Origin: Isoetes taiwanensis
Lineage: Eukaryota; Streptophyta; Lycopodiopsida; Isoetales; Isoetaceae
Assembly: GCA_021234155.1 (NCBI GenBank)
Contig: JAJEKV010000062.1
Span: forward strand, 5,086,497 to 5,150,496
DNA: 64,000 nt
Direction: 5' to 3'
This document shows positions 3,966 to 42,759 of this stretch, piece after piece; position 1 is the stretch's first letter; each line of letters begins with the position of its first letter. Position numbers and translations under genes: made by a program. Below the pieces are notes generated by a model. It was not told the origin of the DNA, ran no database searches, and saw only the letters and a list, made by a program, of their open reading frames with translations.

Positions 3966-4254
3966 TCCCTTTGCCTATTATCTCGCCCGTCACTTCATTG
4001 GAGCTATTACATGTTTCTAATGACGACCTGGTTACTGCTTACCAGCACCATCAGCACCCTAAACAAGCAAAATCAGGGGTGTTATGTGTGCCTGTGAGAA
4101 AGAAAGATAAAATATTTATCCCACAAACTATCTAGTAAAACATCTATAAGTCTAATAGTAAATAACCTTAAATGAAAGGGACAGCTAAAAAATGCCAATG
4201 GCTTCTATATAGCAATAAATAGACGATGGTATTAATAAGAGAATAGAATAGTAG

Positions 4255-9527: not shown

Positions 9528-10081
9528 TGTTAGTCTGTGCCACCCGGCCTTTGGACTATTCTGAAACACAACCGCGAGCCGCCAAAGGCAGGGTCAAGTT
9601 CAAGCGTCAGGTAGTAGACCCACGCCCCCACCAAAACCTATGTAGAAACCCACGCCCTCATCAAAGAAGAGGACCAGGTAGGACAAGTGACCACCTTCGG
9701 GGAATACGGCCTTAACTTAGCGGGATTCCAGGCACTAATGACGGCACTACAAAGCTTCCCTCAAATCAAGCATATGAACTAGGATTTGGTAACCGAGATC
9801 ACAATGGCTCTGCCATATGTCTATTTTGGGCTCAAGGCTGTTGTACTATATATATCAGTAGAGTTAGACCTCAAGTTTTTAGATGAGACTTCGAATCGTC
9901 TTGTTTTAGTTTTGTGCCGCAGCTTCTTGCGTGACCTCAAGTACACTTTATAATATCCAAAGGATTCTTGTCTTGGCATACAACTTCCTTGGTATTTTCT
10001 TCTTTTTGTTCTTATCTCTTGCAAAATACTGTGTGACACTCTATACTAAGGATTTGTCTATTTGATCCAAGGTGTCTTGCA
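9528..10081 (+). mobile_element. LTR of a Ty3-type element (family shared with 32892-33434)
   Basis: It begins TGTTAGTC and is colinear with the LTR at 32892. Shared blocks include GGACTATTC, AGGTAGTAG/AGGAAGTAG, CTATTTTGGGC, a TATA-like GTTGTACTATATATAT at about 9840, AGTAGAGTTAGA, and CTATTTGATCCAAGG near the end. The right border is placed by comparison, ending near CTTGCA at 10081. The TATATATA box and the downstream leader fit a promoter in the R/U5 part. A matching 3' LTR is absent because the element is cut off inside its protease region. Confidence 0.7.
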
Positions 10082-12653
10082 GACAATAACGAACCCAGGC
10101 TGCTAGGTCTTAGTCCTTTTTTTCCAGACCTCAAGGTGTCTGTTCGTGCTTTCACTCAAGGAGAGCTTCTCGGCCAAACTGTAGCTAGATTGGACCACCA
10201 TCAACATAGGGAAGCTGTTCACGATATGTATGATGCTGAGTATGACATTGAAGGAGGCCGTTTATGCTTACATGCTTATTCTGCGCCTCCCATCCCTCGT
10301 ATTTTTTCCAGGCCGGGCTCCCCTCCCAATTGCAAATATTGTTCTCAACCCCAGTCACCGCATCACAATCCTGTGCATCACACTCCTCATTACTTCCAAA
10401 TGCCCGAGAGTACTTATATTTATATTTCCTCTGGGTAGACGCCATTGCCTTCGCAACCGTCTTTCCATACCATTGTATGGGCTACACTCAGGTTTCTTTT
10501 GGTTCCAACCATGTCCAAGAATTTCAGTCTTCCCCATCTTTTCAACATCCTGTCAATGTCTACAATATTGGCAATCCTAAATTGAATGAGGATGGCACAC
10601 AAGAGATCTTGCCCACTGATCCCTATCCTCCTGGACCTCCTGGGTTTACTGTTCCAATGCATGTGCCTTGCTCGCAGCCCTCAGCTGTGCCCCAAGGACC
10701 ATCTTATTCTTATGCCGCACCGCTTCCTACCCAGGTTCCCATGATACCATCCACTGCTCACAATCACACTTACATATCCGACTTTTGGGAATCACGAAGG
10801 AAACATTAGAATGCTCATGCGCACATGGAAGAATTTAAAGCTCTTGCTGTTTTAAATGGACACTCTCAGTCCCAGATCAAGTTTTACATTTTCTCTACCA
10901 CACTGCGAGGAGCACCACATCAGTGGCTCATGGCCAATAAAAGTCATTAGAAAGAAAACTGGCAAGAAATGAAAACAACCTTTTTGTCCCATTATGGTAC
11001 CACATATGACGATCAACAATTTCTCAAGGAATTCAATGATCTTCAACAATAAGCCACAAAATCTGCCCATGATTTCTTGGTTAGCAAGCTCAAAGAATAT
11101 CCTACGCAGAGTCAGATCTTGTTTTGGTTTCTGCAAGGACTACCTCCTGCTGTTCGTCTTATGCCTGAATACTTGCCAAGACGCTGGACCACGCTAACGA
11201 ACTGGTCGGTCATTCCATCAATGTGTAGTGTCCTCCCGTGGTGTTCCCCTCACAGATCTCCCTTTCATTCCTCCTGTCGTGGTTCCACAAAACACGGTCC
11301 AACCTCATCAATCTGCTCCATAATAAAGAAGTCAAATCTGGTGCAACATTTATAAGTATCAAGTCCATCTGGCCAATGAATGCAATTCCACGAATGGTCC
11401 TCCTCACTGCAAGCATTGCAACATGTGCAACCACACTACTGAAGAATGCACGCACTCACATCCCATGCCTTTTCAATAAAAATGGTCTTTCAAGTTCAAA
11501 AGACGCCTCAGCAATATCCACAACCTCGGCAATATCCACAATCGCAGCAATATCCACAAACTCAGCAATCTCAACAATCACGAGGGCAAAACTCATGCAC
11601 TCCTTTTAATCCAGCGAAAGCTAATGTTATCACTGTCAGGAGTTGGGCCACACCACCACGGCATGCCCACAACTTCCCCAAGTTCAAGTCCAACTTCTAG
11701 GCACCAACCAAACTGCCTCGGTGCGTGTCACCACCTATCAACTCTGGGTCACTAATGGAAAACAAAACCCATGCCCCACGTTAAAAAAACCGCCTGGTGC
11801 GCCTCAACAGCAACAGAATCCACAAGCTCCATAGCCTGCTGTCTTGGACTAACAAGCCCAAGAAGAGATATATCAAGCCATGAACCCTCCTGTGCAACAA
11901 TCCAACTGGGTTGGTCTGGTCTCATGCCAGCACCTCGGCACTCGCCCTTTGAGGCTTACACTACAAGACATGCAGCCTGCTTTTGCAGTGGACATTGTTC
12001 CTCTTGAACAACTCAAGACGATGCATTTTGCCCCTGATCTGGAAAAACTCATGCCTCATGTTATGCCCAAGGTATATCAAAGTATTCTTAAGCTCATGCA
12101 AGCTGCAGAAAGACGCACTGCTGGCCAATGTTCATGCTAATCTCGAGCTCAACAACGTAAGGAGGCGCCCTCCACATCTACGCCTACTTCACGCGCTCAG
12201 CCATATCCTAACATTGTTGCCGAAGTAGAGCTCCTCAAGGAAGTATCGGCCTCCATGCCTAAGGAACCAGCCCCGTTGGACTCTGTTGATTCTTTAGCCT
12301 ATGTTCCCTTGGAGCCGCCAAGATCAAAATTCCTCTTAGTCTTCCCACAATTTTGAAGTTATGTGCTGCCCTCTGGGAACAGTCGCCTCTACCCACTGTT
12401 CTTATTGGCACAGTCGCTACTTCCATGCCCATGGTTCACGCAACTGTTGGGAATCAGCAGATTAATCAAGTACAGATTGATGGGGGCAGTGCTGTCAACC
12501 TCATCACGGACAGAAAAAAACTTAGCATCACTCAATTATATCGTGCTCCTTATGGCATCAAATTAGCCAATGGTCACATCAAGCGCCCTCAAGGCGTCAC
12601 CCCTATTCTCCAAATCAGCATTGGTGACCTCAGGATTCTCGTAAAGTTTTAGC
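10082..12653 (+). pseudogene. Ty3/gypsy-like gag and protease remnant
   Basis: Downstream of the LTR lies a long decayed frame. The gag core at about 10808-11200 has the retro-gag pattern (FYIFSTTLRGAPHQWLM, then NWQEM...FLSHY, then FLQGLPPAVRLMPEY). A CCHC zinc knuckle (C-X2-C-X4-H-X4-C, CKHCNMCNHTTEEC) is at 11408-11449, followed by a Gln-rich stretch. A retropepsin block with the active-site motif IDGGSAVNLI lies at 12470-12510. In-frame stops are mostly TAG or TAA where Gln would be expected. The frame ends at a TAG at 12651-12653, beyond which the sequence is unrelated, so reverse transcriptase, RNase H and integrase are missing. It is non-functional. Confidence 0.75.
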
Positions 12654-19072: not shown

Positions 19073-22000
19073 CAGTCGCTACTTCCATGCCAATGGTTCA
19101 CGCAACTGTTGGGAATCAGCAGATTAGTCATGTACAGATTGATAGGGGCAGTGCTGTCAACCTCACAGAAAAAAACTTAGCATCACTCAATTATATCGTG
19201 CTCCTTATGGCATCAAATTAGCCAATGGTCACATCAAGCGCCCTCAAGGCGTCACCCCTATTCTCCAAATCAGCATTGGTGACCTCAGGATTCTCGTAAA
19301 GTTTTAGCATGAGATCTAGATAGATGAATCTCTTAGCAAAAATGCAGGAAAATATGAAAGTACCAGAACAAATTATTAGAATCAAAGCAAATTTGAGAGA
19401 TCGGATCATGCATGCCTTGGTTGGTTACCTATACTTCATTGCAAATAATCGGGCCGATTCAAGCGTGATAGGCTTATAGAGCTAAGCTTTGAATCGGTCT
19501 CGACAACCAGCACGAGGGGACCGGTTAAGCAAGAACATCTGAACTTTAGCTGCTTTTACTGACCAGAGGCCCAGTGCAAGACTTCCCCAAAACTAAGAAG
19601 CAAAGAAAAATAGATGTAAGACCTCTCTGTGCCTGCATCCTGGATCAGCATAACAATCCCGCCAGTAAGATAAACTAGTCAGAAATTCGCAAGTTCGATA
19701 GAGTAGCCAGAGATTTGCCACTCTTATATTAGAGCTTTTGAGGAGAAAAATTGATCAAAGAGACGCCCTAGCATGCTGGATGGGCTTCTACATGGCACGC
19801 CCGATTGCATAAAAGCATCTTTATTTTAGAACCAAAAGCGCAATATCCTTTGCACAAGTCCCGGATCTCTCAAAACATGGCTGCACTCTGTACTCTTGGA
19901 TGATCTATATGAGGGGACTCCAAGCCCCCTCGAACAAGCCCTGGAGCAAAAGGCATGAAAACCAAGAGCATCAACTCACAAATGCATCTCACATTCATTC
20001 AATCGACAATCATCTTAAAACTCAAAACACCAATATGCATTCTTAGCACGTAGAACACTCTACTCCAAATTCGAGGATCACTAAGAAAAACACACACGAA
20101 ACCAACATGCATGCATAGACAGATAAGAATAAAGCTTCCATGGTACCTGCTGGTACAAGATGCTTGCTAAAAAGTTCTCTGGCACCTGCTACAACGCGCC
20201 CGCTAACAACCAAGTATATAATTTTATTGTGAGAATCCAAGAGTAGAATCATGTAAGGAAGTGGAAGAGAGAAGAAAGACTAAAGAGGGACAGGGAAAAG
20301 AAGAGAAAAGCAATGGGCAATGAGAGAAGTGTTGCTGTGAGAAGACGTCGATAACCGGCCTCGAATATAGACTTAAATAATGGCTCGTCCACTTGGAGAA
20401 TGGCGATCCGAGGGCTCGGTCGATGCTATTATTATGATTGCAATGAAGGGAAGACGACTTTGATTTCACAATTGCCCGGCAATGAATCGTAATAATTTCA
20501 TTTAATGACATAATTTTCACAAGTTTTGGCGAGAGATTTATGTACTTGTTCGATGAAACCGAGTTTTGTCTCAAATTTTAAGATAACTTTGATGACTATA
20601 TTGAAAATAAAAATGAGTTTGTATTTTGGTATTTGCCAAAATACCGAGAATTGTCCCCTACTTTTGAACCAACAGAACAACATGGCCAACTGTTATAACC
20701 CCCAGGTGGCTTGGTCAACTTCTCATCCTGCTTGAAATTGCCATATTAGCACATTTGAATTCTGCATATGTTGCTACACATGTAAAAATGATAGGTGCTT
20801 TTCCTCTGTCCAAAAAATTACTCCAATTTATACAATCCAGCATACTTGCAAGATAAAATGAATAAAACACTATAAATATACCATGTAGTATGTGGGATAT
20901 AAGTGCCATATAACATATGCCTTCTTGAATATTGTGATAGTGCATTTGGCGGTATATCTGCAAGTTAAATTACTTTACAATCAACTACAGCATGATTTGA
21001 AATTGTAACTGTCCTAGCCACTTGATAGACTAGCATACGTATTCATGTATGTATGGATATGCTTGACATGCATGCAGGATGGAACTAAAAAATAAGCAAA
21101 GACTTAGATAATAAAGAGGCATTGGGGAAAAGGAAATTTAAAAGAATTTTTTGCAAAAGGAGATCACCTGGAGCATGACACAGAGCAGGAGATTGTACCA
21201 GGAGGATTAGCAGGAGACGCCAGATCCTAGTATTGTATCGGATCTTTATCTTCTTCAGGTGGGGATTTGGATTTCCATTGATTCAATAGAGATTTGTATA
21301 TGTTGTCATGATTAGATCCATGCATGCTTTCATAAAGGCTTCAGGGCTATGTATAATCTTGAGAAGCAGTGGCTTAAACTAGATAGCTTGCAATCACATA
21401 GGCTGCAATCAGATTGTAGGATGTTGGATTAGAGTTGCACAAGGACAAAAGACCAGTGCTCTGGAATCAATCTTGGGGTTTTCATGCCTTGTGAGATAAC
21501 TTTAGTATCACCTTACGTGAATCTGTGAAAGGGTATTTGTTAGTATTGCGTATGGATTGGATTGAATAGTACTGGCTAAAAATTTGAATATGATATGCAC
21601 TGGTTAACTCGAAGAGCAGCAAGAGCAGGAGTAAAATCATGTGAGTCATGTTAAAATTGCTATTAAAGTGCCATTTTTGATGAATCAAAGGCCGTTTTTA
21701 TACAATCAATGGTTGTTGCTGTTCTTTGGTATAAATTGAAGAGCTAAAAGAGAAACTCCAGACTGTTGAAGGTGATGAGATCAAGTTGGAAAACTAGCCA
21801 AAATTGCTCAGAAAGGGCCAAATTCAAGGTAAAAAGGGTCGATTTGCCCTGGGAAGGACCGGATCAGAGAAATTGAAGTCTTTACGAGCTGCTGATTGTG
21901 CGGAATGAGTCGTTCAATGTTTTTTTTTGTTGATGCTTATCTTTGTTTTGTTATACGTTGTTATATTTTATGCTTTGTGAGATTTCTAATAATTAGTGGA

Positions 22001-27010: not shown

Positions 27011-27664
27011 CTAAGAGACAAATATTTGAATTAAGGGCAGTTTTCGAGTCGGAGCTCTCCTTTTTGTGTAAAATAACAGGGTTTCGAAAAAAAGTGGGAA
27101 TGGAATGAGACCCACTTTAATTAAATAGTGCTTATATACATTTCCATCATGTTTGAGTGCCTCAAATCCCTGTTCTTTCAGATAACTATCTATCCATTGT
27201 CTGGGAGATTGCTTTAGACCATAAACTGCTTTCTTTAGTCTCCAGCACTTATTCTTTCCTTCCTCATACCCAGGTGCTTGTTTCATAAAAATTTCCTCCT
27301 CAAGCTCAGCATTTAAAAATGTTGTGCTAACATCCATATGATGTAGCTCCAAGTCACAAGCATTTGCCATGGCAATGAGCATTCTAATGCTTGTCAACTT
27401 AACCACTGGAGAGTAAGTCTCTTCATAATCAACCCCTTGCTTTTGAGAATATCCTTGGGCTACAAGTCTCGCCTTATATTTAGTACTCCCATCTGCATTA
27501 ATTTTTAGCTTATAGACCCACTTGTTCCCAACAATATTCTTATTTTTTGGTATATCCACCAGCTCATATGTTGAGGTTCTGTCAAATGCATTAATTTCCT
27601 CTTCCATTGCTTCTCTCCATTTGCTTGCATTTAAGCTGTTCATGGCATCTTCAAATGTCTCCAT
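27011..27664 (-). pseudogene. Ty1-copia reverse transcriptase, truncated
   Basis: This is the N-terminal half of the RVT_2 domain. WREAMEEEINAF, NKWVYKLKINADGS, YKARLVAQGYSQKQGVDY, ETYSPVVKLTSIRMLIAMAN, HHMDVSTTFLNAELEEEIFM and CWRLKKAVYGLKQSPRQW are all typical of plant copia elements. Similarity stops at about 27120 (HDGNVYKH), before the YVDD catalytic motif, and the remaining ~35 codons are unrelated. RNase H and the 3' LTR are therefore missing. The frame is offset from the integrase frame, requiring a frameshift at about 27660-27690. Confidence 0.9.
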
Positions 27665-29192
27665 TTTCTAAAACCATTAGAGCTTCAGTTATGTCCCCTT
27701 TATTCAACCTGCTACTTCTCCCATTCCTTTGTCTTCCACAATCTTCAATGTTTATGTTTAAATCATCCTTTAATTTTTCACTTTCTGTTTTCCTTTTCTT
27801 GTGCCCATCATTTTCATGAAAACTTTCTTGATTATTTTCCACATTTTGATGGTGTTCACTCTCATCTCTTTCCTCTTCTTCTTCACTATCATTTTCAAAA
27901 TCCTCAAATTTTGATGAATCTGAAGGTTCACTTAATGTATCCGACTTCTTATCTTCCTCTTCTGTCATGTATTTTGTTAACTCCTTTTGTTCATATTCTC
28001 CACTCGTTCCCCTTGGCTTATATAATTCCTTTTCTACAAATTCAACATCCCTGCTAACTACAATCCTCCTTGCTGCAGTGTCATATACCCTATACCCTTT
28101 CGAATGTTCATCATAACCTACCAAATAGGTTATTAGTGATCTATCATCAAGTTTCAGCCTTTTCTCTTCTGGTATATGTGTATAGGCTAGACATCCAAAT
28201 GCCCTAAATTTTTCATAGTTTGATGGCTTTCCTGTCCACAATTCTTCTGGACTTTTTCCATCCAATACCCTTGTTGGTAAAACATTTTGAATTACAACTG
28301 CAGTCTTAACTGCCTCTTCCCAAAGAAAATTAGGAAGTCCAGAGTGTTTTAGCATGGCTCTGACTACATTTAATATGCTTTTATTTTTTCTCTCAGCTAT
28401 GGCATTCTGCTGGGGAGTATAACTGCAAGTATATTGTCTCTTTATCCCTTTCTTTATGCAATAGGTTATGAATTTGCCTGACATATATTCTCCTCCCCTG
28501 TCTGATCTGACACATTTGATCTTTTTCCCTGTAGAACATTCTACCTCTGCTGCAAATAGCTTAAAAGCCTCAAAAGCCAAATTCTTGCTTCTCAAGCAAT
28601 AAACTCTTGTTTTTCTACTATAATCATCAATGAAAGTTATAAAATATTTCTTACCTGAAATTCCTGTTATGTTCAGTGGTCCACAGAGGTCTGTATGCAC
28701 GAGTTCCAAGACATCTTTTGCTCTTTCCTTGGATCTTGAAAAAGGCAACCTGCATTGTTTCCCTAACATGCATCCTTTGCATACATGATTGACAATTTTG
28801 CTATTAGAACTTTGTATCAGTCCTTGATTTATTAGATACTCAATATTTTTAAAGTGTGTGTGATCAAGTCTTTCATGCCAGCACAACATATCAGGAATGG
28901 TAGCAACATTAATGCTGTTCAAGCAGTGAGGATCAATTCCAAACAAATTTCCAACACGCTTTCCTAAAAATTTCAATTTATTTCCTTCATAAACTTTACA
29001 TTCAAGTTGTTCAAATACAACTTTGAACCCCATATCAACCAGTTGACAAACTGAAATTAAGTTCCTGACTAAGCTTGGAACACCTACCTCTTCCCCTTGC
29101 ACTCGTGTTTCTTCCTCCCCTTCCTCTTCCTCTTCCTCTAGAGCTGTCTTTTGGTGTGGAGCAAGTAGAAGCATAATGACCTCTGCCTCCAC
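27651..29192 (-). pseudogene. Ty1-copia integrase region
   Basis: The frame carries a pre-integrase zinc motif (H106 in CWHERLDH, later C138 and C141) and an integrase core. Catalytic residues are D167 (LVHTDLCGP), D231 (RSDRGGEY) and E267 (NAIAERKN), with the classic 35-residue D-E spacing. The C-terminal GKxPEELWTGKPSNYEKFRAFGC-like block and an acidic linker lead to RT. Upstream, the frame jumps from the Arg/Gly tail of gag to NLISVCQL, so the protease active-site region (normally DSGA) is missing. The core itself is intact, but the element is dead. Confidence 0.93.
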
Positions 29193-30010
29193 AATTGTAA
29201 CAGTTTATTTCCTTTGTCAAGTTTAGGCAATTTATCTTTATATGCCCATGCTGGTTACAATGGTAACAAGGTCCAATTCTGCCTCGATTTTCTCCTCTAT
29301 TCTTTCCCTTTGTAAATAGTATCTGACTTGTTTCTTCTTCATCAGTAACTTTATTCTGTTCTATTTCTGTTTTCAACATCCTTTCAGCTTCTTCTCTGGT
29401 CCTTGCTATTGTCCTTATGAATACTGCTATATTTCCTAAACTTGTCACACTTCTGGAGATTGCAAGAACTTGTTGTTGTTGATAATAGGTTACCCCTGCA
29501 CCCTCAAGATCTGCAATAATATTATCAAAGCTTTGTAAGAACTCATTCACATTACTCTTGTCAACAAGTTTCAACCTCCGTAATTCATTTTCCAAGACAT
29601 CAATCTGTGAAGAAGTCTTCTCCTCATATGTCATCAGCAAATATTTCCACATGTCTCTGGGATGTTTTCCTCTTAGTTTCAGTACAATTCCAGAACTCAC
29701 TTTACTTATTATGATGCCTTGAGCTTCTCTTAACTTGGTCTGACTTTCACTGCCTTCACTTGCACCAGAGGTTACACTCACCTCTCTGCCCTCTTCTCCA
29801 GCCATACTCTCTGCTTCTGCTGTGGAACTTCCTTCTTCAGCAACATTTGAAGGCTTTTACTTAACTTCTTTCACAACTGTATTAGTTGGCTCAACAATTT
29901 CCCATAAATCCTCTACTTGCAACACATGCTTAATCTTCTCTTTCCAAACTTGAAACCCTGAGTCTCCCTTGAATACTTCAATAGCATTCAATAAGCCTGC
30001 ACCAAACGGT
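29035..30010 (-). pseudogene. Ty1-copia gag
   Basis: The N-terminal part (FKGDSGFQVWKEKIKHVLQ, VEDLWEIVEP) lies at about 29990-29870 and is followed by an in-frame TAA. The rest of gag runs from an internal ATG at 29805. The UBN2-type gag core includes MWKYLLMTYEEKTSSQIDVL. Two CCHC knuckles follow, CYHCNQHGHIKINC and CYNCGGRGHYASTC, then an RG-rich tail. It overlaps the integrase frame by about 150 bp in another frame, a sign of the deletion that removed protease. Confidence 0.9.
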
Positions 30011-30020
30011 TAGACATTTT

Positions 30021-30036
30021 CTAGCTCTGATACTAA
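30021..30036 (-). other. Copia primer-binding site (initiator tRNA-Met type)
   Basis: The minus strand reads TTAGTATCAGAGC just before gag. This matches the standard plant copia PBS TGGTATCAGAGC except near its start. The preceding TTCACA would be the end of the 5' LTR. The LTR should extend to higher coordinates, but its outer end could not be fixed because the 3' LTR is missing. Confidence 0.7.
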
Positions 30037-30623
30037 TGTGAACAAATTAATTGGTCTAGCATTTTCTCTAATTGGTCAAGACAAAATGTCTAGCTTACTC
30101 AACATTAACATCTTTAAAATATCAAGTTCAAGATGCAAACATTTGCATTTAACTACTGCATAACTTAGCAAATAAATCTCATCGCATAAGCACTACAACC
30201 ATGTTAATCACAAGGTATGCTTCAACACTAACCATTGTCATTCTTTCAAGCAATAACCATTGAAGATAAAATCAATGGTCATATAGAGCCATATACCTTA
30301 TTCTCAAATTACCTTCACAAAAACAGACCTGTTATTCTACAATGGCTGTCGCATAGAATAGTCACGAAACCCTGTGCATAAATCTAAATCAATCTAGCTT
30401 CTTAGTTTTATAATGGACAGTTCCGGCAGTGCTGGAACCACCCAAGTCTTCCGGATCCATCTTCGATCTTATCCTTTCAGAAGTTTAGATCAGAAGAAAG
30501 TTTCTACTTTCGAAAATGGTGTTTGCCTCCAATTTCTTTGATGCCAAAAAATACCATCAATAATATATGTTCACATTTTCAACCATAGGTCGAAATATAT
30601 GAATATCCCATATTCTTCACACC

Positions 30624-30990
30624 ATGAAATATCACACCCACTCGGATGTGGATAGGCTGGACCCCTATGTCGATCTATATGATGACATACAGCAGCATAA
30701 GCAGTTGGGCAGTGGCATACTCCTTGGAGACTTCAATGCGCGCACCGGGGTAGAACAACCCATGAGATTTGATCCACTGATGATATATTGCAGTTGCGTC
30801 CTGCAGAAGGAGCTTGGCCACGGACATCAGATGACAATCAGGTCACGCGCTATGGTCGACAGTTGCTTCTGCTCTGCAGTATCTTTGACCTGGTAATCTG
30901 CAATGGACTGGCACAGTGGCCTTCCACCCGCATGAACACTGGTAGATTGTCTAATGGTGGACCACGTTGCCATGTTACTTTAAAATAGAC
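30624..30990 (+). mobile_element. LINE apurinic-like endonuclease fragment
   Basis: The frame from 30624 includes DPYVDLYDDIQQHKQLGSG and ILLGDFNARTG, a conserved block of the LINE endonuclease (GDFNA). A frameshift near 30790 continues as YGRQLLLLCSIFDLVICNGL, the next conserved block. No reverse transcriptase follows, so this is an isolated fragment. Confidence 0.75.
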
Positions 30991-32891
30991 CGTGTGAAAG
31001 GTGTGTAAGTGCCAAGGAGAATCAAGTAGGTCGTCTTCATCTTAGATAATCAAGTTGTTTCACTTGAACTCCATCATATCAGGTGAACTCTTCTGTCTCC
31101 ATTTGTCTGTTAACTTCAACTTCTGATCATTCAGTTAAATTTCAACCTGACAAATGTTTATGAATAATAAGTTGTGAGCTGAACAATACTCTCACAACGT
31201 CAACATGGTAAGGTTGTATGGGCAACCTCGGGAAGAGAAAAGTCTAGGCACATGTTTAGTAATTGTCTAATGAACACACATGTCATGGTCTTTACATTGT
31301 CTCATTGTTGTTTTGTTATGTATTTGGATCCTCCGGGGTCGGACTTCCAAGTTCGGTGGTCTGGGTTATTCCGGCATGACTCCTGTTCTATGTTCTCTGT
31401 ATTGTGCTCAGTGACACTGGGCGTTAGTTCTCCTGGCCAGAATTGCTACGTCAGTAAACTCTTGTGAACTCCCATGGTAAGAGGTCCTTCAGTGCCAGAC
31501 GTGGGCTGGGAAGGCTATCTTTATCTGAGGTTCACCCTCCCCACCACCACCTCTGGGGGCTTGGAATGTAAGTTGGCTGGGCAACATGCTACTAACGAGA
31601 CCTATGTGTCTGGCTGAGCTACTCATTGTCCCCGAGTTTGTTTATGATAGTTCGGTACTCTGGTTATGTTCTTTGCTCCTGATGTTTATGTTATTTTTTG
31701 TTGTCATTGTTTAGCGTTGCACCATAGGTTCTTGTGTCTTTGAGTTGTTATATTTGTCATCCAATATTGCAAGATGTTCTATGCATGCAAAAGCAGCTAT
31801 GGGATCCCCACTTAGTCATGAGGATTAACCCCCTTGAGTGCATTGTGCAGTGAATTAGCAAGCAATGGTCAAGCTAGCGGCAACAATGTAGCCGGGGATC
31901 GTGATTGGGTTCTAGAGGAGAAGCTCTTCGTTAAATTGCTCAGCTAGATCTTGTGAATGTGATGATGATAGTGTTAACTCTTAATATTATTGTATTTGAT
32001 AATGGATATACTATGGTTGATCTCTGATTATTATGAGTAAGAAGATTCAATTCTTCACCAATACTATCAGCCTAGAATTAGTGCAAGTTTAGACAAGATC
32101 CCGAGTTGCCAGGAGGGTCAACTCCGCAGGCTCGTCACAGAAATGAGCATCCAAGTGGTAAAACATGCATCATGTTAGATAAACATCAATTAACGACGAC
32201 GAATAGAACAGAACGAATCAATAACTTGCAAAAACATCATACCTAATTCGTGCAAAAGATATACCTTATTTTTGAAGGATGCATAAACTAAAAATCAACT
32301 TGAGCATCTCCTCCAAAACATCTATACCACTATCAAATAGCATGAATTTCAGAACAAATGTCTAGCAAATAACTATCTAACTTATAAGATTGGATTATTT
32401 GCAAAAATCAAGAAGCTTACATACTATTTCATCACCATTTTTATCTGTTTTATTTGGTTGCAACATGGCTTGCTCACTAGCCAAAGCACCAAGGCAATAA
32501 AGAGCAAGCATTTAGAAAATGCGAACACAAGATTCAGCACATCAAATCCACGCACCTGATACCAAACTTCTTTGTTGTGCTGGTTCCAATGAGATGTTTT
32601 GTTAAAGAAGAGACCAGCTTGAGATGATGGTCAAACCCTCCAGCTCATATGAAAGGAAGCAAGGCAGGTATGGAAGGAAGCAAGGCAGGAGCAGACCTAC
32701 ATTTTGGCGAAGGAAAACCTGATCAAATCATCGTACATCAAATCATTATACACAAAACCCAAATAAAACCTAACTGCAAGGCAAAAATAGCTTGAAAGAA
32801 AAAAAAAGCACCGGAGGTTGAGGACCGCACAGAAGGGAATTTTGTCCATGCAGTTGTGCCAAATCTGGCAAAGCTCTAGTTGTGATTTTTC
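30991..32891. other. Unassigned spacer
   Basis: Mixed composition. A GC-richer patch at 31320-31640 contains no convincing RNA gene or domain. A short direct repeat (GGAAGGAAGCAAGGCAGG-like) lies at 32649-32690. Nothing else is supportable. Confidence 0.35.
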
Positions 32892-33434
32892 TGTTAGTCC
32901 TCTACGTCCTGCTACAGGACTATTCATGCACACCACGGATCAGGGCAGGAATAAGACACCAGGTCAAGGTCAACCATCAGGAAGTAGCCCTCCTCTGAAG
33001 ACCACGACAAAGACCACGCCGAAGAAGAGACAGAGAACAGATAAATGAAGGCCCTGCAGAAGTACAGTCATCACAGCGCGTGATTCCATGCACATAAAGA
33101 AGGTACTGCAAGATTTCTGGGAAATCAGGCTTTGATTCAGGAGTTGGTAGCGAGATCTGCTAAACATCTATTTTGGGCCCAAGGCCGTTGTACTATATAT
33201 ATGAGTAGAGTTAGAACTCAGGTTTTTAGATGAGTTTCAGTCCTTGTCTCTAGTCTTTCTCTCGATTTTCGAGAGCTCGTGTACACTTAGTGATATCAAG
33301 GAAGCATCATTATCTTCACTGTTTGTTGTTCGATCTTCCTGTTTCATTCTTTCTGTTCCTTTGCAAATCCCGCATAACACTCAGCCAGGATTCTCCTATT
33401 TGATCCAAGGGTCCTCACAGAGGGCTGTCTTACA
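32892..33434 (+). mobile_element. 5' LTR of the non-autonomous element
   Basis: Begins TGTTAG. It contains GGCCGTTGTACTATATATAT at about 33182-33201 (likely TATA box) and ends near CTTACA at 33434 by comparison with the LTR at 9528. The 3' border is approximate and no standard tRNA-Met primer site follows. A GAACCCAG motif is shared just downstream in both family members. Confidence 0.7.
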
Positions 33435-33823
33435 GGAGATCCCGAACCCAGACCCTAAACAATCTGCCATCCACTTTTATGATGTCCAACTCTCGAGTTG
33501 CCTGCATTAATTGTTATTCCTTCATCCTATGCCCGTCTGCCATTATTACTCGTACCTTCACCAAGCTGTCACATCCTACCGTTCATCCTTGTTCATCTCC
33601 ATGTTCCTTTGCTTTTCCTTTGCTGCTTGGGGACTTAGCCAAATTTTTGCCTCCCAATCGTCTCTTTCAGATCTGCTGCCATCTGGCACTATCAACGGCT
33701 CAGCTTCTCCTCCTCAAACACCTTTCTGCAACACCCGCGCACCCTAAACCTTTTCGCATCTCTTTCGTCCTCCGTCTTCCGCTCTCCGTCCTCCAGCTTC
33801 TTTCCTTCTCTTTGCTCATCGTT

Positions 33824-36767
33824 ATGGCTGCCTCGTCTAAGTTCCCCACTCTTCAAGTTACAGTCCCCAGGGATCCAGCTCTTTTTGAGTCGGTGGTTTT
33901 CTCCACTCCCACTCTCCGAGATCCTTTGGAAGGTCCAAGTCGCGAAGTTGCAGAACGCACAGGATTATTTGAGTTCTCTCGGCAGGAGCTCCCGGCGCCC
34001 AATCCACTTCAACTCAGACAGTTTGTTGCTCATCTGGTCAAGACCAATGCCGGCTATCTCAAAGAGGTTAATCAAACTCGTATCCTCCTCACTCTGACTC
34101 TTCTGGCAGAGGTGTTTCAATTGCCCATCCGCACCCCTTCCTTAAATTGGGCTGCTTTGGAGGATTAGGATGTCACCAAGTATGGCCAAACTCCTTATGC
34201 GGCCACCATTCATAAGCTCACCAACATTGCCAAACCTCATGAAGGCTTTGTGCAGTTTTTGTGGCGCAAGTTCTTTGGGTACTCCATCAAGAACACCCAT
34301 ATCAACAAGCAGTTCTTTCATACTGCTATCATGGCCATTCATTCTCCGCATCCTATTGATTAGCCTCAGATTTTGTTCCATCGGTTGTGTTACGAAATTG
34401 ATAGAATCCGTCATTCTCCTGCCTCTGGCTTAGAATCTGCCATGGGTGCTCACATGCAAGCACTCATCGACCATTGTCTTCCTGTTCCAAGTCAGGGTTC
34501 TTCTAGTAATCTGGATACAACTTCTCAAGCCTCCACTCATCAACCAGCCAACATCATTTCTACTGTCAAAAACCTCCAGGAAGAAATTTCCCGTCCCCAA
34601 CCATCTTCATCTCCTCACCGTCAGCAACAACGCGAACCCATCATCAATGTTCCATCCTCTCAGTCCACAATAATCTAAAATTCCCGTTCTCAGCAAGTCT
34701 CTTAGAATACCCCTTCCATCCGGCCACACCAGTCCTTACCAGTTCAACCCCTGCAACCTCCACTGTCCCGATGCGCCCTCTATCAGTATCAGCAGGATGT
34801 CCAAGAATGTATGCTCAAACTCCAAGACTCTCAAGAAAATCTTATGAATGGGATCCAACATTACATGGATTCCACGGATGCTCTTCAATGTGATCTTCAG
34901 GCTGCCGCAACACAAGTTCAGTCTCTTGAAGAAAGTCTCCAAAATAAGCACGCTGCCCTGTTACAGACCCGTGAGGCTCTCCAAGCTGAACAAGAAAGGA
35001 CCACCACGCTTGCAGATTAGCAGATTCAGTTGCAGACCACCATTCAGGAACTTCTGGCCCAGCTCAAGGATAAGGATAAGCTCCTTACTGATCTTCAAAC
35101 CATGTATACAGATCTCTCCAAAAATTACAACAGTCAGTTACAACAGGTTGCTCTCCGTGATGATCGCATATCTCTTCTAGAAGGACAAGTCTCAGACTTC
35201 CGGACTTCGAGTCACGCCCTTACAAGCTCAGGTTGTTGAAGCCCAAAAACAGAAGTTGATTGATGACATTGAAATTACCAGTCTTCAACTTCAACTCTCT
35301 ACTCAGGCTCCTTCCTCTTCACATGCCACGCACTCACACCGTCCATTCCGTGATCAGTCCCGTCTCCTCACGGACAAAGATAACAAAATCCGTGACCTCG
35401 AACATCAGATCACCCAAGCTCTCCAGTCTGCTGAAGAAGCGCAGAGTCAACACGAGACCTACCTACAGCTTGCTATGACAATTCCACGGGATTACTCCAC
35501 TCCCTCAAGTTAATTAGATTATTTTATCTCACGCGTCATCTTTTCCTTCTCGAGTGGTATTCTGCAAACGGCAAAATTCATGAGCCCCTCAGCAGCACCG
35601 ATCTTCTCACTATATGGCCAGATCTCTTCATTGAGGATAAAGGACTCTTCTATGGTCTCTTGGTATATGGCCTCCTCACCTGCGACGATCCTGAATTTTT
35701 TATCTTCCGCCTGGTACAGCCGATGCCTTATGTCCTTCATGAGTTCTATCTGGCCGATACCATCGACAAGTTCGATGATAAACCCAACCGGATATTCTGT
35801 AGCAATGAACAGGCTCAATGGTTGTTGTTACCAGAGAACACATATTTGCAGGATCCAACTCAAGTCACAGCTTTCAAATTGGAGTATATGCCAGAGCTTG
35901 CTAATCATCTTCCTCTCTGGATTGCAGAGACTCTGCAACAAGTCCGTAAGAACTTGTCCGAGGACATGGGTATTCAATTTGCCCAAATTTATTTGCAACA
36001 TCTTGGTGGATATAACACTCTGCGTGTATATCTGGACAACCACACTATCCTTGTATACTTCCTTGTTCTGATTGGGAACAATGGTGTCAAATCTTGGATG
36101 CTGATCTCGTTCGAAAATTCAGAGAGCAGGCTCAGAAGCCCACGATGCAGCCCCAACCAGATACTCATCCGTATGCATCTCTGGGAGCGCCACTACGCCG
36201 TCGCTATCTCACCTCTGACTGGTATCTCCCCTTTTGGACCAAGGTTCTGGACGGGCACGCTGACTGGACTCCCACTCAGATATCCACTGATCTCAGGTGG
36301 GATCCACGCTTTGTTTGCCGCTCTGTCTGGCAAGAAGGGGATACCTTGGAACGCACCAGCAATTGGATCTATATCCCCAATGAAAGAGGTTGGCAGACGC
36401 CTACTCACGTTGTCTGGGTCTCACTCAATTCTTGGAGCGTGCTGCCACCTCCCCAAATCCTTCTGTTCACCGTCAAGCCGGTTTTTGTGCTTCTTTGAAG
36501 TGCCTTATGTTGTGTTCTCTTGCACAGAAGCGCCCTATTTATTATTGCAACCCTAATGCAAGTGCCAGTGCCTTTGGCCTTCAGACATATCTTCTGATGG
36601 AGTGCCAATATGTCCCTGCGGAGGCTCAACGTGCCCTTGAAGACATGGTGCTATCTGGCTTTCTCATCGATGCCTCTCAGGCAATTGGCCTCAATACCCT
36701 TGAGGCTCTCAAGGAACGGCAGGAGCTTATCACGACCTACCACTCAGGCAACCGCCCCCATACCTGA
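33824..36767 (+). pseudogene. Long unknown ORF of the LTR element (coiled-coil middle)
   Basis: The coding region starts at ATG 33824 (MAASSKFPTLQVTV). One main frame runs about 1.4 kb, interrupted only by point stops (TAG at 34166, about 34361, about 34703 and 35018, TAA at 34676). Frame changes then occur near 35225, 35515, 36085 and 36390, before the final TGA at 36765-36767. The first part is a globular domain (FVQFLWRKFFGYSIKN). A Gln/Ser/Pro-rich linker follows, then a heptad-rich coiled coil at about 34811-35500 (LQAAATQVQSLEESLQNKHA, LLAQLKDKDKLLTDLQ), then a second globular part rich in aromatics (YLPFWTKVLDGHADWTPTQI). I do not recognise the family. It could be a diverged gag-like or captured host protein. 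Confidence 0.6.
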
Positions 36768-36841
36768 CAAGATGATTTTTCTGTTGCTGGGTTCCCGCCT
36801 CCTGAATCTGTTCCACCTTTTCTCTCCCTTGAGTGTCATTT

Positions 36842-36854
36842 GGTGGGGGGGGAG
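36842..36854 (+). other. Polypurine tract
   Basis: GGTGGGGGGGGAG sits directly against the TGTTAG start of the 3' LTR. It is the expected primer for plus-strand synthesis and supports the orientation and LTR border. Confidence 0.8.
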
Positions 36855-36963
36855 TGTTAGTCCTGTACGTCCTGCTACAGGACTATTCATGCACACCATG
36901 GATCAGGGCAGGAATAAGACACCAGGTCAAGGTCAACCATCAGGAAGTAGACCTCCTCCGAAG
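36855..36963 (+). mobile_element. 3' LTR, truncated after about 109 bp
   Basis: It matches the first ~109 bp of the 5' LTR and then breaks into unrelated sequence at about 36964, so most of the LTR is lost. Confidence 0.8.
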
Positions 36964-39296
36964 AAATTGTCATGAAAAGCTTGAGATTTGCAGAAGCAGA
37001 CACTTTTATGTCCTTCCTCATATGCTCCATATTGAGATGCACCATGTGTGACAAAGTATTTTTGGGATGTGCAAGGGCACAAAATTTTTGATAAAAGAAG
37101 GGAAACAGAAAAGGACGAAATGATCAACACATAAATTTTTTTAATAGATATTCAGCAGATAGAAGATGAAAAAAGGGATCCAAACAAAAATGGAAAAAGG
37201 GGTCAAACAGTGGATTTTCTGATAATCTTGCAAAGAGGAGTGTTGTCACCACTCCAGCAATCCTTAACTGTGAACTGGGCTTGCTGCATTAAGAACGGGG
37301 TCTTGAGAACAGATTTACGAGAGTAAATTGATCAGCTAGCAGAATCATCAGCTGTTTTGGAAAAACAATAGCCTCCAAGCGAATACATGAATGCACTTGG
37401 TTGGGCAAACTAAGGAAATTTAAGAGGGAAGAATAGTATACAAAAAGTTTTCAAAATGGAGAAGCATGAGAGCTGCAAGACAACAGCAGAAAGTAAGGCT
37501 AAAGAAAATGATCACGAGTGAACCCGGCATAACTGCGCCACTGTTAATTGTGAGTTCTTGGCATACAGCCTGCAGCAGCAGTCTATGACTGTTGGATGCT
37601 ACAAAGCTGCCATGCTCATGATCATAAAACAAGAACACGACAAACAAATATGTACAAAGAGTGAAGGGAACATGGCCAAATGAGGCTCTCCAAATTTGAG
37701 ATAAAACCTGAGTACATCTGAAGAGGCTCTGGTCTAATATAGTGTAGACCGCAAATCTGAGCCCTACATCTAACTAAATCTAAGCCATACACTTAAGTTA
37801 ACCTAAACATGCCAAGTGTCAGTCTGCCACCACTGACACCTAACATGTGCACAATGTTAACCACCATCTAGGTGGTTAACATTTTCTTTTTTCCTTCAAC
37901 CAAGATAATGCTAGCCATAATAACACCTTGTATTGTAATTTGATAAGAGGACAGAAAAAATCTTAACGCAAATTACAACTAATAGAAAAGGAAAGGAGGA
38001 GAAGAAAAGCGAGATATGGTTTTGCACCTCAAACTGCTACTTATCAAATTCATGTATCAACGAGACAATCAGGACTCAAGATGGAGTTCTTTTTAGCCAC
38101 CCCAAAAGTGGCTTGAATCATTCGATCTGTAACAGAACAGATCAAAAAATAAGTTATGGGGAAGGGGCCAGATATGGCCAGAACTGACGGAATATTACCT
38201 GGTGACGAAATGTTACCTGCTGCTATCTAGAATACTCGCCCCTGGCCCATCTTCTGGCAGGAGGTTTAGATGCAACCACATCTCTTCATCTGCACTCTAA
38301 TTCTTATATAGAAATCGAAATATCAACTGCCCAAAGAAGAGAAAAATCGGCAATTTTGTAGCCACATTTCGCCCTGCTTGCCTTCCACATTCTGCCATGC
38401 GTTGCCATGGTCTTGACCACATAGCTGTCGAACGTGCCATATAGCTAGAAAAGTTTTGCCCTTTTTTAATGCGACATGTCAAAACAAGGTGTTGCGCACG
38501 AGGGGTTGCCCTCCAATGCCGCGAAAGTGTGTTTTCATGGTTTCTGTTTCATCATTTTGTGTTGGGTCCTTTTTGTTTGTCATAGGGTGTCATTTTCTTA
38601 GGGCAAGAGTTTTGTTTATGAAGCTATGAAGGTCAATTTATAGAACTGCAGGAGGAAAGAATAATATTTCAAACTAATTTACATAATCAATACTGTGCAA
38701 CGAATAACTCTATGATTTACGGGTACTTGAGATATAGAACGGGCCGCGATGAATAAAGGGTTGCATTATGATTTAAGATACATAAAAGCAAGTTAAGATA
38801 AATTTGGGCGTTGACATTGTTATTAGTTTTTACGCGACATTCTTGCATTTCACCTCACATTCTTGAATTTTACCTCACAATGACAACCTTATTGGCTATT
38901 TAGTTGATCTTGTTAGCATATGTCGAATTATCTTCCTTAAATTTATCAAACAAACCTGGCACAAAGTGCACAAAGTGCATGACTCTCAAGTTTTGGCGAG
39001 TCTAGAACAAGAACAGTGGCATACAGATAAGTATATGTTTCAGCTTCATAAAGATAATGTTGGCAAAAAGGACTTTCATTTAAAGGCAAAAAAAAAGCAT
39101 CTACTAGGCATGACCATATCAACCTTTTTAATTTGGAAATTTCCGGCATGGCCTAAAAGTTTTTGGTTTTTTTTTTTAACCGATTTTACTAAGATTGTTA
39201 GGTATTTCTTTGCCGGAAAATTTTTCCGTTATTCTAGAAATCGACTAAAAATCGACTATTGGGAAGTGTTGAGGGGTTTTTGGCGTTCGTCCATGC
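36964..39296. other. Unassigned spacer
   Basis: No gene is recognised. The region contains the 13-mer GTGTTGCGCACGA at 38489-38501, found again at 62777-62789. Short frames lack domains and splice structure. Confidence 0.35.
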
Positions 39297-39386
39297 ATGT
39301 TGGACGACGATTTGGTCCACAAATCCAAGTCCTTGGACTATGCACGTTGGACGATTTGCTCCACAAATCCAAGGAGTGGCGAGTTT
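39297..39386 (+). repeat. Two-copy 49-bp repeat upstream of the RPA ORF
   Basis: GTTGGACGA...GATTTG.TCCACAAATCCAAG occurs twice in succession (about 39299-39332 and 39347-39379), separated by TCCTTGGACTATGCAC. It lies about 140-220 bp upstream of the RPA ATG, so it could be part of its promoter or leader. Confidence 0.6.
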
Positions 39387-39520
39387 CAGGTATCGAAGGC
39401 CTGCCATCCGAAATTGATGCCGATTGTATAAGAGTGAGTGAGAAACGAAAATGATCAGCAGTAGAGCAGTAGAATTTGAGATTGGAGGTGAGTATAATTT
39501 GAAAGTTTTTGATTTTTAGA

Positions 39521-41032
39521 ATGGCTGGCAGTTCTGATGTGCGATGTTTTGATAATGTTCCTTGCTCTTCTTTTCGGTCTTCTGGTGCGCCCTCTTCTAT
39601 TGATTCTGATGCTCCATGTTCTCATGTGCCCTCTTCTTCTGATGTGCCCTCTTCTATTGGATCTGATGCCCCATGTTCTGATCCTCCTTCCTCTGTTCCA
39701 TGTTCCTTTTCAAGTAGCAGAGAGACTAGGATCATTCCTATTCGTAGTTTAAGTCCTTATATCCTTAATTGGAAGATTAAGTGTAGAGTGACCGCAAGGG
39801 TAGCATTAAAAAAATTTGCGTCCTCCAGAGTTACTGGCATTCTTTTCCATTTTGATGTCATGGATTTGGAATCATCTGAGATACGAGTGGTATGTTTTAA
39901 TGCCTTGGCTACAAAATTTGATAGGCATATCCGAATTGGCAAGGTTTTGACTATATCAAAAGGGATGTTTAAGCCCGCAAATAAGATTTTCAATCAGTTA
40001 AGTCATTCGTGGGAATTGTATTTACAAGAGAGTTCTATGGTTGAAGAGTGTGAAGATGATAAAACTATTCTGCATCACATGTATAAGTTTGTGTCCATTG
40101 CAGACTTAGAATTTAAAGATAGGGATTCCGTGGTTGACGTTATTGGTGTTATTACTGAAGTAGAGGAGGCATCACGTGTGCATCGTAAGAATGGAAGCCC
40201 TGTTGATCGTAGAATTATTCATATGAAGGATGAATCTGGTAAGCAGATTGAGATCACTATGTGGGTGCAGGTGTCATTGCGAGAGGGCATGCAAATCGAG
40301 GAGGCTATGAGTGCGAATAGGGAGCCAATTGTCGCGATAAGAGGGGCGAAGGTGAGCGATTATGCAACTAAATCGTTGGTTACTCTTCAATCCAGCCAGG
40401 TGCAAGTAAACCCCTTCATTCCTGAAGCTAGGGCATTAAGGGCGTGGTTTGTTAAAGAGGGCAAGAAGAGTGTTTCTGTTTCTCTCACAATGACTGCACA
40501 GCCATTGGCTGTTGATGATTCTTTAAAATTTGTCTCCGAGCTATCTGAGGTGGCTCTTAGGGAAATTGAGAAACCAATGTTAGTAGAGTTAAGAGGCACA
40601 ATAACAAATATGAAGCATGATCTATTGTACTATGCAGCATGCCCATTGAAATGTGGCAACCGCCAATGTCTGAAAAAGGTGAGGGCTACTGAAGATGGTC
40701 TATGGCATTGCATTAGCTGCAATGTTTGTGTGAAAGAGTGCTCATACAGGTATGTAATCTCGCTGCAGTTATCAGACCACACAGGAAGTTTATGGGTCAC
40801 TGCTTTCCAAGATATAGGTGAGCAGATATTTGGTTGTACAGCAAAGCAATTAGATCTCTGGAAACTTACAGACATTGGAAGGTTTAATGCGATTGTGCAA
40901 AGAACATTCTTTAAAACCTTCCAGTTCAGAATTAGAATAAAGGAGGAGATATATAATGATGTGGAAAGGAACAAGTATATTGTGGAAAAAGTTGATGAGG
41001 TAAATTATTCGATGGGATGTCTTGCAATTTGA
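39521..41032 (+). CDS. RPA70-like single-strand DNA-binding protein, intronless
   Basis: 503 residues from ATG 39521 (MAGSSDVRCFD). The frame could extend to TTG 39509, but the ATG is preferred. After a Ser/Pro/Cys-rich N-terminus of ~65 residues come three OB folds of the RPA large subunit. DBD-A is ~72-170 (IIPIRSLSPYILNWKIKCRV ... GMFKPANKIFN), DBD-B ~187-295 (DVIGVITEVEEASRV), and DBD-C ~350-500 with its zinc site (C374, C378/C383, C397, C400 in CPLKCGNRQC and WHCISC). The protein-interaction domain RPA70N is absent. It would bind ssDNA in replication or in rolling-circle transposition. An uninterrupted ORF without RPA70N is typical of the RPA genes carried by plant Helitrons, and a Rep/helicase lies 6 kb downstream on the same strand. 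A host RPA1 paralogue is the alternative. Confidence 0.85.
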   Translation: MAGSSDVRCFDNVPCSSFRSSGAPSSIDSDAPCSHVPSSSDVPSSIGSDAPCSDPPSSVPCSFSSSRETRIIPIRSLSPYILNWKIKCRVTARVALKKFASSRVTGILFHFDVMDLESSEIRVVCFNALATKFDRHIRIGKVLTISKGMFKPANKIFNQLSHSWELYLQESSMVEECEDDKTILHHMYKFVSIADLEFKDRDSVVDVIGVITEVEEASRVHRKNGSPVDRRIIHMKDESGKQIEITMWVQVSLREGMQIEEAMSANREPIVAIRGAKVSDYATKSLVTLQSSQVQVNPFIPEARALRAWFVKEGKKSVSVSLTMTAQPLAVDDSLKFVSELSEVALREIEKPMLVELRGTITNMKHDLLYYAACPLKCGNRQCLKKVRATEDGLWHCISCNVCVKECSYRYVISLQLSDHTGSLWVTAFQDIGEQIFGCTAKQLDLWKLTDIGRFNAIVQRTFFKTFQFRIRIKEEIYNDVERNKYIVEKVDEVNYSMGCLAI

Positions 41033-41744
41033 TCGAAACAATCACGAGAAATTGTGTTAGGGTCAATTGTACTTATTCCGTATTGTGTTTAATGTGGATT
41101 TGTGAGTAGTGTAGAATATCCTTTCTTCTCACTTCCTTATGGGAATTTTGCCTATAAATTTAGTTGTGCACAATGTCACAACAGCTTATGTATTGAATAA
41201 TTAAAAATTAAAACAGATGTATTTTTTGGATCGTCTAGATTGCACAAAATTGCAATATGAATCAGTTGTTACATTTTTTACCTCCATCTTTCCTCATTTT
41301 ATTCATAATTTCAGTAGCAATCTAGGCTAGGTAGAGTCTTTTGCTTTCTAATGAAGGGGTTTTTACGATCTGTAATGATTTTCAGTGGAAACGATTCAAA
41401 CTTCAATGTCATCTATGAGAGCTTGAACAAATCATTATTTGCCAACTTGAGGTAGCCGATCTCTTTTTTTTACTTATTCATTATTCTCATGCATGCATAA
41501 TTCTTTGATTTTGGGAAGAACAATTAGTATACAACGTCCTCAGTAGGCTGCATTTGAGGTGCTTTCGAGGTATCAAATCTGTGCAGGCCCCTATTGTTCT
41601 TCTTCACAGGCTTTAGGATTTTAATGATGCAATGCTCATTCTTGCATAGGATCATCTAATTGTTGCGGTGGAAGATAGTCATAAATCATATCCATAAAGA
41701 GGCTTGAGATTCTTCCAAAATATGCACGAAAAAGAAATGTATCA

Positions 41745-41965
41745 TGGACAACCATGCTTCTTTGCTTTTGCCAATCATGGTCACCGGAAGATGCCCTTAG
41801 TCTTTTCCAAAAATGCCTAAGAAGCATGTAATGTCATGGAACACTATGATAATGGCTTATGTTCAACGGGGAAGCTCAAGGAAGGCTGTTCAACTCTTTG
41901 AGCAAATGCCATTCGAGAGACACGATTTCATGGAATACACTAATATCGCATATTGTTTTCCATGT
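41745..41965 (+). pseudogene. PPR protein fragment
   Basis: The frame at 41813 reads MPKKHVMSWNTMIMAYVQRG, then AVQLFEQMPFERHDF. This is the PLS-type pentatricopeptide repeat signature (MPxxxVxSWNxMIxxYxQxGxxxxAxxLFxxMP). Only one to one and a half repeats remain and the frame then degenerates. PPR proteins act in organelle RNA processing, and this scrap cannot. It has the same orientation as the RPA and Helitron ORFs. Confidence 0.7.
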
Positions 41966-42759
41966 CCTTGTTTTCCATGTCCTAGAATCACATCCTTCTG
42001 TGATGACTCAAGTGCCTTATAGCTGCCCTGGCTAACTATGGCAATATCTGCCAACATAGGAGGCTGGCTTGCCATATTTAAATTAGCAAAGCAGTTCTTT
42101 CTCATCCATTAGGGAGTAAATATTCTTATGATCCACAAGACAGTGCATCAATTATAATAACTAATTCTCCTCTTTAATACAGATTATTCAAAGTGTAGGC
42201 TTTCTTGGGCCAGCCTTTTTCCTAACACAGCTCAGTGGTAGTTCCATGCACCATCTGCATGACCTACATGTGATCTACAATTCTGGCATCTATAAATGGG
42301 TCACATGATGCAATGAGAAGAGAAATCAGTCAGGAGGAACTTCAGAGAATTGAATGAACAAATGACATAAATTTAATGGTTGTAGACTTCAAAGAATCAG
42401 ATGGCAACTAGAAACTTTAAGCATCAGTTATGTTATAGATCATGCGCATACAGATCGTGCACATACCTAGAAGATTAGGTTCTAGAGAATAGATAGGTCA
42501 GTTTGATGTAAAAAAGCATGTCTTAAACATTTCATAGAAGATATAACATGCGAATAGTACTGAAGGTTAAAAGAAACAAAAGCCTTGGTTGTAAAAATGA
42601 TGGAAAATGATATAAGCATCTGTTTGGGATCGTTTGCAGAATCATGCCCCTTCTATTGCTCCTTTTGTCTGGGTACATGCATGCCTCAAAATTTTGCCAT
42701 GCCAATAAATCAGAGTTTTTTCAAAATAAAGAGTTTAGTAGCACTGTTGGTGAGTTCAG

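What the first reader, a model, noticed from the sequence alone, without database searches (positions are those of the whole stretch)
32892..36963. LTR element encoding only a novel ~950-residue coiled-coil protein
LTRs and polypurine tract are clear, but there is no pol. The internal ORF has two globular parts joined by a long heptad-rich coiled coil and matches no family I know. A relative with the same LTR type (9528-12653) carries gag and protease, so this looks like a non-autonomous lineage with its own protein, perhaps a structural or packaging factor.
Basis: partly seen in the sequence, partly recalled or inferred. Interest (0 to 1): 0.75.

Follow-up and report, generated by a model that had tools for sequence, protein, structure and literature searches.

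The report
Gutted plant retrotransposon keeping third gene
This stretch is a decayed jumping gene that lost its copying machinery in one private deletion; what is left is an unusual coiled-coil protein gene that full members of its family carry behind the normal copying genes and appear to keep under selection.

Summary
The features are real: a 570-bp LTR (32892-33461), a polypurine tract, a 110-bp 3' LTR remnant, no pol, and a decayed ORF for an N-terminal domain, coiled coil and C-terminal domain without a Pfam family. The 'non-autonomous lineage' is not supported. Relatives in the same genome are Ty3/gypsy elements in which this ORF lies behind integrase in sense direction (an eORF-3'F / aORF-3S). 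The LTR-to-ORF junction of the window copy occurs in 2 of 40 scored matches: the window and a copy inside a 94%-identical duplication of at least 15.4 kb. So one element lost gag and pol in one deletion (about 5 bp of microhomology) and was later duplicated with its flanks. The protein is a real, widespread gene: about 150 scored copies per domain (capped), frames open for up to 972 codons, median dN/dS about 0.2 in frame and above 1 in shifted frames. No consistent transmembrane segment was found, so an envelope role is unlikely; I favour an oligomeric accessory protein of particle or RNP (inferred). Assembly size points to Isoetes taiwanensis. New member of a known kind; interest moderate.

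The parts
32892..33461 (+). 5' LTR, 570 bp, TGTTA...AACA
   Evidence: matches LTRs of near relatives at 84-90%; ends read
33459..33463 (+). deletion junction: LTR end joined to the leader of the extra ORF; primer-binding site, gag and pol are absent; about 5 bp (ACAAT) shared by both sides
   Evidence: only 2 of 40 scored matches span it; letters on both sides in L008, L009, L010, L007
33464..33823 (+). leader of the extra ORF (lies behind integrase in longer elements)
33824..34465 (+). N-terminal domain of ORF3, two in-frame stops
34466..34780 (+). Ser/Thr/Pro/Gln-rich linker of ORF3, two in-frame stops
34781..35510 (+). coiled-coil part of ORF3, one stop and a change of frame
35511..36767 (+). 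C-terminal domain of ORF3, broken by changes of frame and a stop
36842..36854 (+). polypurine tract
   Evidence: same motif in L009, L010, L012
36855..36964 (+). 3' LTR remnant (first 110 bp only)

Best explanation
The window copy is a dead, internally deleted Ty3/gypsy element: one private deletion joined the end of the 5' LTR to the leader of the third gene, removing primer-binding site, gag and pol; it decayed by stops and frame changes and exists a second time through segmental duplication of its flanks. The protein belongs to the longer, pol-bearing elements: a sense-strand extra ORF between integrase and the 3' LTR (eORF-3'F / aORF-3S). Shown: position, conservation, frame-specific purifying selection, coiled coil, no consistent transmembrane segment. 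Inferred (odds about 0.45): it forms an oligomer through the coiled coil and serves as an accessory protein of the particle or ribonucleoprotein (assembly, RNA packaging or nuclear delivery) rather than as an envelope. The confidence given is for the shown part.
For: Private junction: of 40 scored matches 2 span it, 33 match only the ORF leader and 5 only the LTR. Duplicate: 15.4 kb around the element, 94% identical, flanks included. Integrase upstream of ORF3 in 6 of 9 loci with enough upstream sequence: L002, L003, L004, L005, L008/L009, L010, about 0.9-1.5 kb before its start; not in L001, L007, L013. Pfam: RT 2.7e-23, RNase H 1.7e-33 and integrase domains in L008; RNase H and integrase in L010; integrase in L005. 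29 linked integrase/ORF3 pairs. Median dN/dS 0.22, 0.20, 0.17 for N-domain, coil, C-domain; 1.07-2.11 in shifted frames. Coiled coil; the best weak Pfam and PDB matches lie in it.
Against: The molecular role is untested. A junction so close to the LTR end is a coincidence that I explain only by short microhomology. Three of nine loci have no integrase upstream of ORF3, and one neighbouring pair (C1035) has integrase downstream instead. Fold models were useless (mean pLDDT 34.4 and 35.5). Of six proteins checked, four of them incomplete, two have a 19-residue window above 1.6 (L026 2.07; L023 1.86, in the stretch read through the polypurine tract), so membrane contact is not excluded. The searches score only the best candidates, so a pol-less family could be missed.
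Confidence: 0.9

Rival explanations
1. One reading: a non-autonomous LTR lineage that spreads with only its own coiled-coil protein, mobilised by relatives.
For: LTR, polypurine tract and protein gene without pol in the window; a second copy with the same layout (L006).
Against: The second copy shares flanking DNA over 15.4 kb; no other of 40 scored matches has the junction; the 5' LTR runs straight into the ORF3 leader, without the primer-binding stretch seen in L008, L012 and L014; a further pol-less copy, L013, has a different private junction.
Confidence: 0.04
2. The protein is an envelope-like membrane protein, as proposed for some Athila-type and SIRE elements.
For: Position and sense orientation behind integrase; a coiled coil is also a feature of envelope proteins (PMC1142308, passages).
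Against: No 19-residue window reaches a hydropathy of 1.6 in 4 of 6 proteins checked, and the N-terminus does not look like a signal peptide by inspection.
Confidence: 0.12
3. The deletion arose when a spliced subgenomic RNA for ORF3 was reverse transcribed.
For: The junction lies between LTR end and the leader of ORF3, where a spliced message could join.
Against: The letters at the junction show neither GT on the donor side nor AG on the acceptor side, but a 5-bp shared word.
Confidence: 0.06
4. ORF3 is a captured host gene that adds nothing to transposition.
For: Captured genes are known in plant LTR elements (PMC7264820).
Against: Some 3300-4100 first-look candidates per domain, 150 scored, and frame-specific purifying selection between copies 55-73% identical.
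Confidence: 0.1

Closest known systems
eORF-3'F / aORF-3S of plant LTR retrotransposons (Neumann et al. 2019, PMC6317226; Vicient and Casacuberta 2020, PMC7264820)
   Same: Sense orientation, between integrase and 3' LTR, longer than 250 codons, no known domain.
   Different: Here one protein family is conserved between diverged copies with dN/dS near 0.2; PMC6317226 (passages) describes the proteins of such ORFs as highly heterogeneous. Long coiled coil, no consistent transmembrane segment.
Athila/Calypso env-like ORFs
   Same: Ty3/gypsy, third ORF behind pol.
   Different: Some such ORFs are described with transmembrane domains (PMC7264820); no PF03078 (Athila ORF-1) match here; lineage tree not made.
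Ogre/Retand extra ORFs (plant mobile domain PF10536, Transposase_28 PF04195)
   Same: Long Ty3/gypsy elements with extra ORFs.
   Different: The Retand ORFs are antisense (PMC11963269, abstract and opening part); no PF10536 or PF04195 match here; no second RNase H recognised.
Orchid Ty3/gypsy elements with an RNA-demethylase ORF (PMC9289625, abstract)
   Same: An extra ORF kept in a Ty3/gypsy lineage, with a function shown for that protein in vitro.
   Different: That ORF has a known enzyme domain; this one has none.
Non-autonomous LTR elements (TRIM, LARD, BARE-2-like; recalled)
   Same: LTRs and polypurine tract without pol.
   Different: Those keep the primer-binding site and form families; this copy has lost it and its deletion is private.

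Membership tests
Ty3/gypsy LTR element (relatives L008/L009, L010) | RT-RNase H-integrase in this order between LTRs | tested here: met
   RT, RNase H, integrase zinc and core domains in this order in L008; RNase H before integrase in L010; LTR pairs
Ty3/gypsy LTR element (relatives L008/L009, L010) | gag and protease upstream of RT | tested here: inconclusive
   Pfam sees them only weakly in L010 (Ty3_capsid 0.006, Asp_protease_2 5.5e-4, both below cut-off) and not in five L008 pieces at E up to 10; DNA of this side matches window 9715-12632
Ty3/gypsy LTR element (window copy) | primer-binding site after the 5' LTR, and gag-pol | tested here: not met
   LTR end runs straight into the ORF3 leader
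eORF-3'F / aORF-3S | sense ORF of at least 250 codons between integrase and 3' LTR | tested here: met
   stop-to-stop frames of 924, 972 and 814 codons behind integrase in L002, L003, L005; in L004 and L010 the gene is split by frame changes
Envelope-like protein | signal peptide and transmembrane segment | tested here: inconclusive
   4 of 6 proteins have no 19-residue window of 1.6 or more; hydropathy only
Non-autonomous LTR family | several independent insertions sharing the same internal structure | tested here: not met
   (2 of 40, the two being one duplication); L013 1 of 40
Athila lineage | RT-RH-INT tree placement | not testable with these tools
   no reference RT sequences at hand; resemblance of the integrase end is recalled only
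Athila lineage | no second RNase H, no chromodomain | tested here: inconclusive
   none recognised in the open pieces scanned of L008 and L010 or in the integrase ends of L004, L005; frames are broken and Pfam also missed the protease of L008
Athila lineage | primer-binding site for tRNA-Asp (recalled) | tested here: inconclusive
   one search shows a TGTCG..GCCGGG-like word behind the LTR; the one recalled tRNA-Asp pattern found nothing in the genome
Tat lineage | additional RNase H domain | tested here: inconclusive
   none recognised, same limits; in club-moss TatI it is expected between protease and RT (PMC6317226, passages)

The most novel reading that the evidence does not exclude
A lycophyte Ty3/gypsy lineage depends on a third, non-membrane protein of unknown fold (N-domain, 248-residue coiled coil, C-domain) kept under purifying selection; in most readable copies its frame has no stop before the polypurine tract and ends inside the LTR, so gene and replication signal overlap.
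Probability: 0.4. Interest if true: 0.55.

Novelty: new member of a known kind. Interest (0 to 1): 0.38.

Why it matters
Extra ORFs behind pol in plant retrotransposons are common but described as diverse and of unclear function (PMC6317226, PMC7264820). This family offers very many copies and a frame-specific selection signal, so the question whether such a protein serves the element, and how without a clear membrane anchor, becomes testable. For the window it corrects a tempting misreading: a pol-less element with its own protein is here one gutted copy, not a lineage.

Tried and rejected
Non-autonomous lineage: rejected by the junction test and the segmental duplication. Spliced-RNA origin of the deletion: no splice signals at the junction. 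Known family: Pfam on 9 window pieces and 4 long relatives gave nothing above a cut-off; the weak matches include several coiled-coil families (best: Crescentin rod, E 1.3e-6, score 28 against a cut-off of 100). A profile of 7 relatives against PDB gave 7 weak hits, all within the coil (profile 351-470), best E 0.008. Folding single window pieces gave mean pLDDT 34.4 and 35.5, so no structure search was run. ORF3 tail in the LTR: 9 tails of one frame end in a basic, NLS-like word, but dN/dS is 0.77 in frame and 0.85 / 0.69 in shifted frames, so no sign of coding selection. Primer tRNA: one pattern, no match.

Rows dropped: for the selection test I used only frames without stops in the stretch compared, and pairs with dS between 0.05 and 1.5: usable 47 of 66, 76 of 91 and 40 of 66 pairs; most pairs with the window pieces fell out as saturated. 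Frame control without window pieces: 45, 76 and 38 usable pairs in frame, 52-53, 88-89 and 55 in shifted frames. The closest coil pairs reach 0.34-0.49. Tail test: 9 of 22 printed tails, those ending in the basic word at a stop. Loci were chosen for long open frames or LTR pairs, not at random.

Full report
What is in the window. A direct repeat of 110 bp (96%) lies at 32892-33001 and 36855-36964. Aligned to relatives, the 5' LTR is 570 bp (32892-33461), and the 3' LTR is only its first 110 bp. A polypurine tract precedes the 3' LTR. Between them lies one gene in pieces: five in-frame stops up to 35020, at least four changes of frame and a stop at 36765-36767. Nine pieces gave no Pfam family above its cut-off. 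LTR divergence is 0.037 over 110 bp, against 0.049-0.057 for four other LTR pairs; I give no date because I have no rate for this plant.

The genome. The window lies in an assembly of 1,658,258,908 bases in 1110 contigs. The Isoetes taiwanensis paper (PMC8566536, passages seen) reports 1658.30 Mb in 204 scaffolds plus 909 contigs. I take the host to be this quillwort; that is inference from size and counts. Its assembly used nanopore reads, so some frame changes and homopolymer lengths may be sequencing errors.

The protein is common and conserved. The N-terminal and C-terminal parts gave 151 and 150 matches, the scoring cap, from 3322 and 4115 first-look candidates. Many have no stop within the match; the longest open frames around them are 946 codons (N-terminal list) and 972 (C-terminal list). 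Six relatives are 55-73% identical to the first of an alignment of seven (979 columns). An alignment of 18 rows (16 loci, two window pieces) shows an N-terminal domain of about 215 residues, a Ser/Pro/Gln-rich linker, a coiled coil and a C-terminal domain of nearly 400. The coil measures about 248 residues and its heptad periodicity exceeds all 300 shuffles in each of 5 proteins. Median dN/dS is 0.22, 0.20 and 0.17 for N-domain, coil and C-domain, and 1.07 to 2.11 when the same alignments are read in shifted frames. So the protein was under purifying selection in the copies that spread.

Where the protein belongs. Five distant copies with long frames were fetched with flanks. In four of the five (L002-L005) integrase lies upstream, in L003 in decayed form (37-40% identity to that of L005); in L001 it was not found. 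Among near relatives of the window copy, L008/L009 (LTRs 13.9 kb apart) and L010 (9.6 kb, lacking part of the gag side) have RNase H and integrase (L008 also RT by Pfam), then this gene, then the 3' LTR. Gag and protease are recognised by Pfam only weakly and only in L010. Of nine loci with enough upstream sequence, six have integrase before ORF3; L001, L007 and L013 do not. Reading the capped lists against each other gave 29 integrase/ORF3 pairs on one strand with gaps of 750-3620 bp, against about 0.07 expected by chance; one further neighbouring pair, on C1035, has the reverse order. It is therefore a sense extra ORF behind pol, the eORF-3'F of Neumann et al. (PMC6317226, passages seen) or aORF-3S of Vicient and Casacuberta (PMC7264820, two of three parts read).

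How the window copy arose. A 341-bp query across the LTR/ORF3-leader junction gave 40 scored matches. Two span it: the window and C1070:5440064. Of the other 38, 33 match only the leader and 5 only the LTR. The second full match lies 320 kb away in a copy of at least 15.4 kb around the element, 94% identical, flanks included. One deletion and one duplication explain both. Both sides of the junction share about five bases, and I see no splice signal there. Other shortened copies differ: L012 keeps the gag side and lacks ORF3, L014 keeps the start of the gag side and the end of ORF3, and L013 joins ORF3 to an internal stretch of other origin by a junction seen in 1 of 40 matches. So internal deletions of several kinds occur in this family, and no pol-less form with ORF3 was seen to spread. 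The search scores only the best candidates, so a rare family could be missed.

What the protein may do. Hydropathy shows no 19-residue window of 1.6 or more in four of six proteins checked (L001 and L003 nearly complete, the rest partial); L026 reaches 2.07 in a conserved stretch of the C-terminal domain and L023 1.86 in the stretch read through the polypurine tract. A membrane envelope is thus unlikely but not excluded. A long coiled coil between two conserved domains suggests an oligomer; the likeliest role is an accessory protein of the particle or RNP. This is inference. Of 22 polypurine tracts found, 16 have the ORF3 frame open up to the tract; behind it the frame depends on the length of the G run. 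One frame of U3 encodes a basic tail in several copies, but substitution patterns show no coding selection on that tail (0.77 in frame, 0.85 and 0.69 shifted).

Lineage. Neither a chromodomain nor a second RNase H was recognised in the pieces scanned, which by the criteria of PMC6317226 would fit Athila better than Tat; with broken frames and no tree this stays open. Literature searches (listings, apart from the papers named) showed no paper that I recognised as describing this protein, in a library that lacks most subscription journals.

Verdict.

Noticed in passing
window 9715-12632: Distant relative of the same family: end of an LTR and the gag-protease side, about 69% identical to L008, L010 and L012.
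   Followed up: partly
window 19075-19287: Further fragment of this family's protease region, 71-73% identical to L008/L010.
   Followed up: no
window 27237-42647: Duplicated about 320 kb away on the same contig (C1070:5434000-5449500), 94% identical; true ends not reached.
   Followed up: partly
window 32893-33045; also L004, L005, L009, L012, L013, L015, L022, L023: One frame of U3 encodes a tail that ends in a basic NLS-like word in several diverged copies; no frame-specific selection.
   Followed up: yes
L013 (C335:323000-329000): Chimeric element: LTR and a different 1.4-kb internal stretch joined to ORF3, with another LTR end just upstream.
   Followed up: partly
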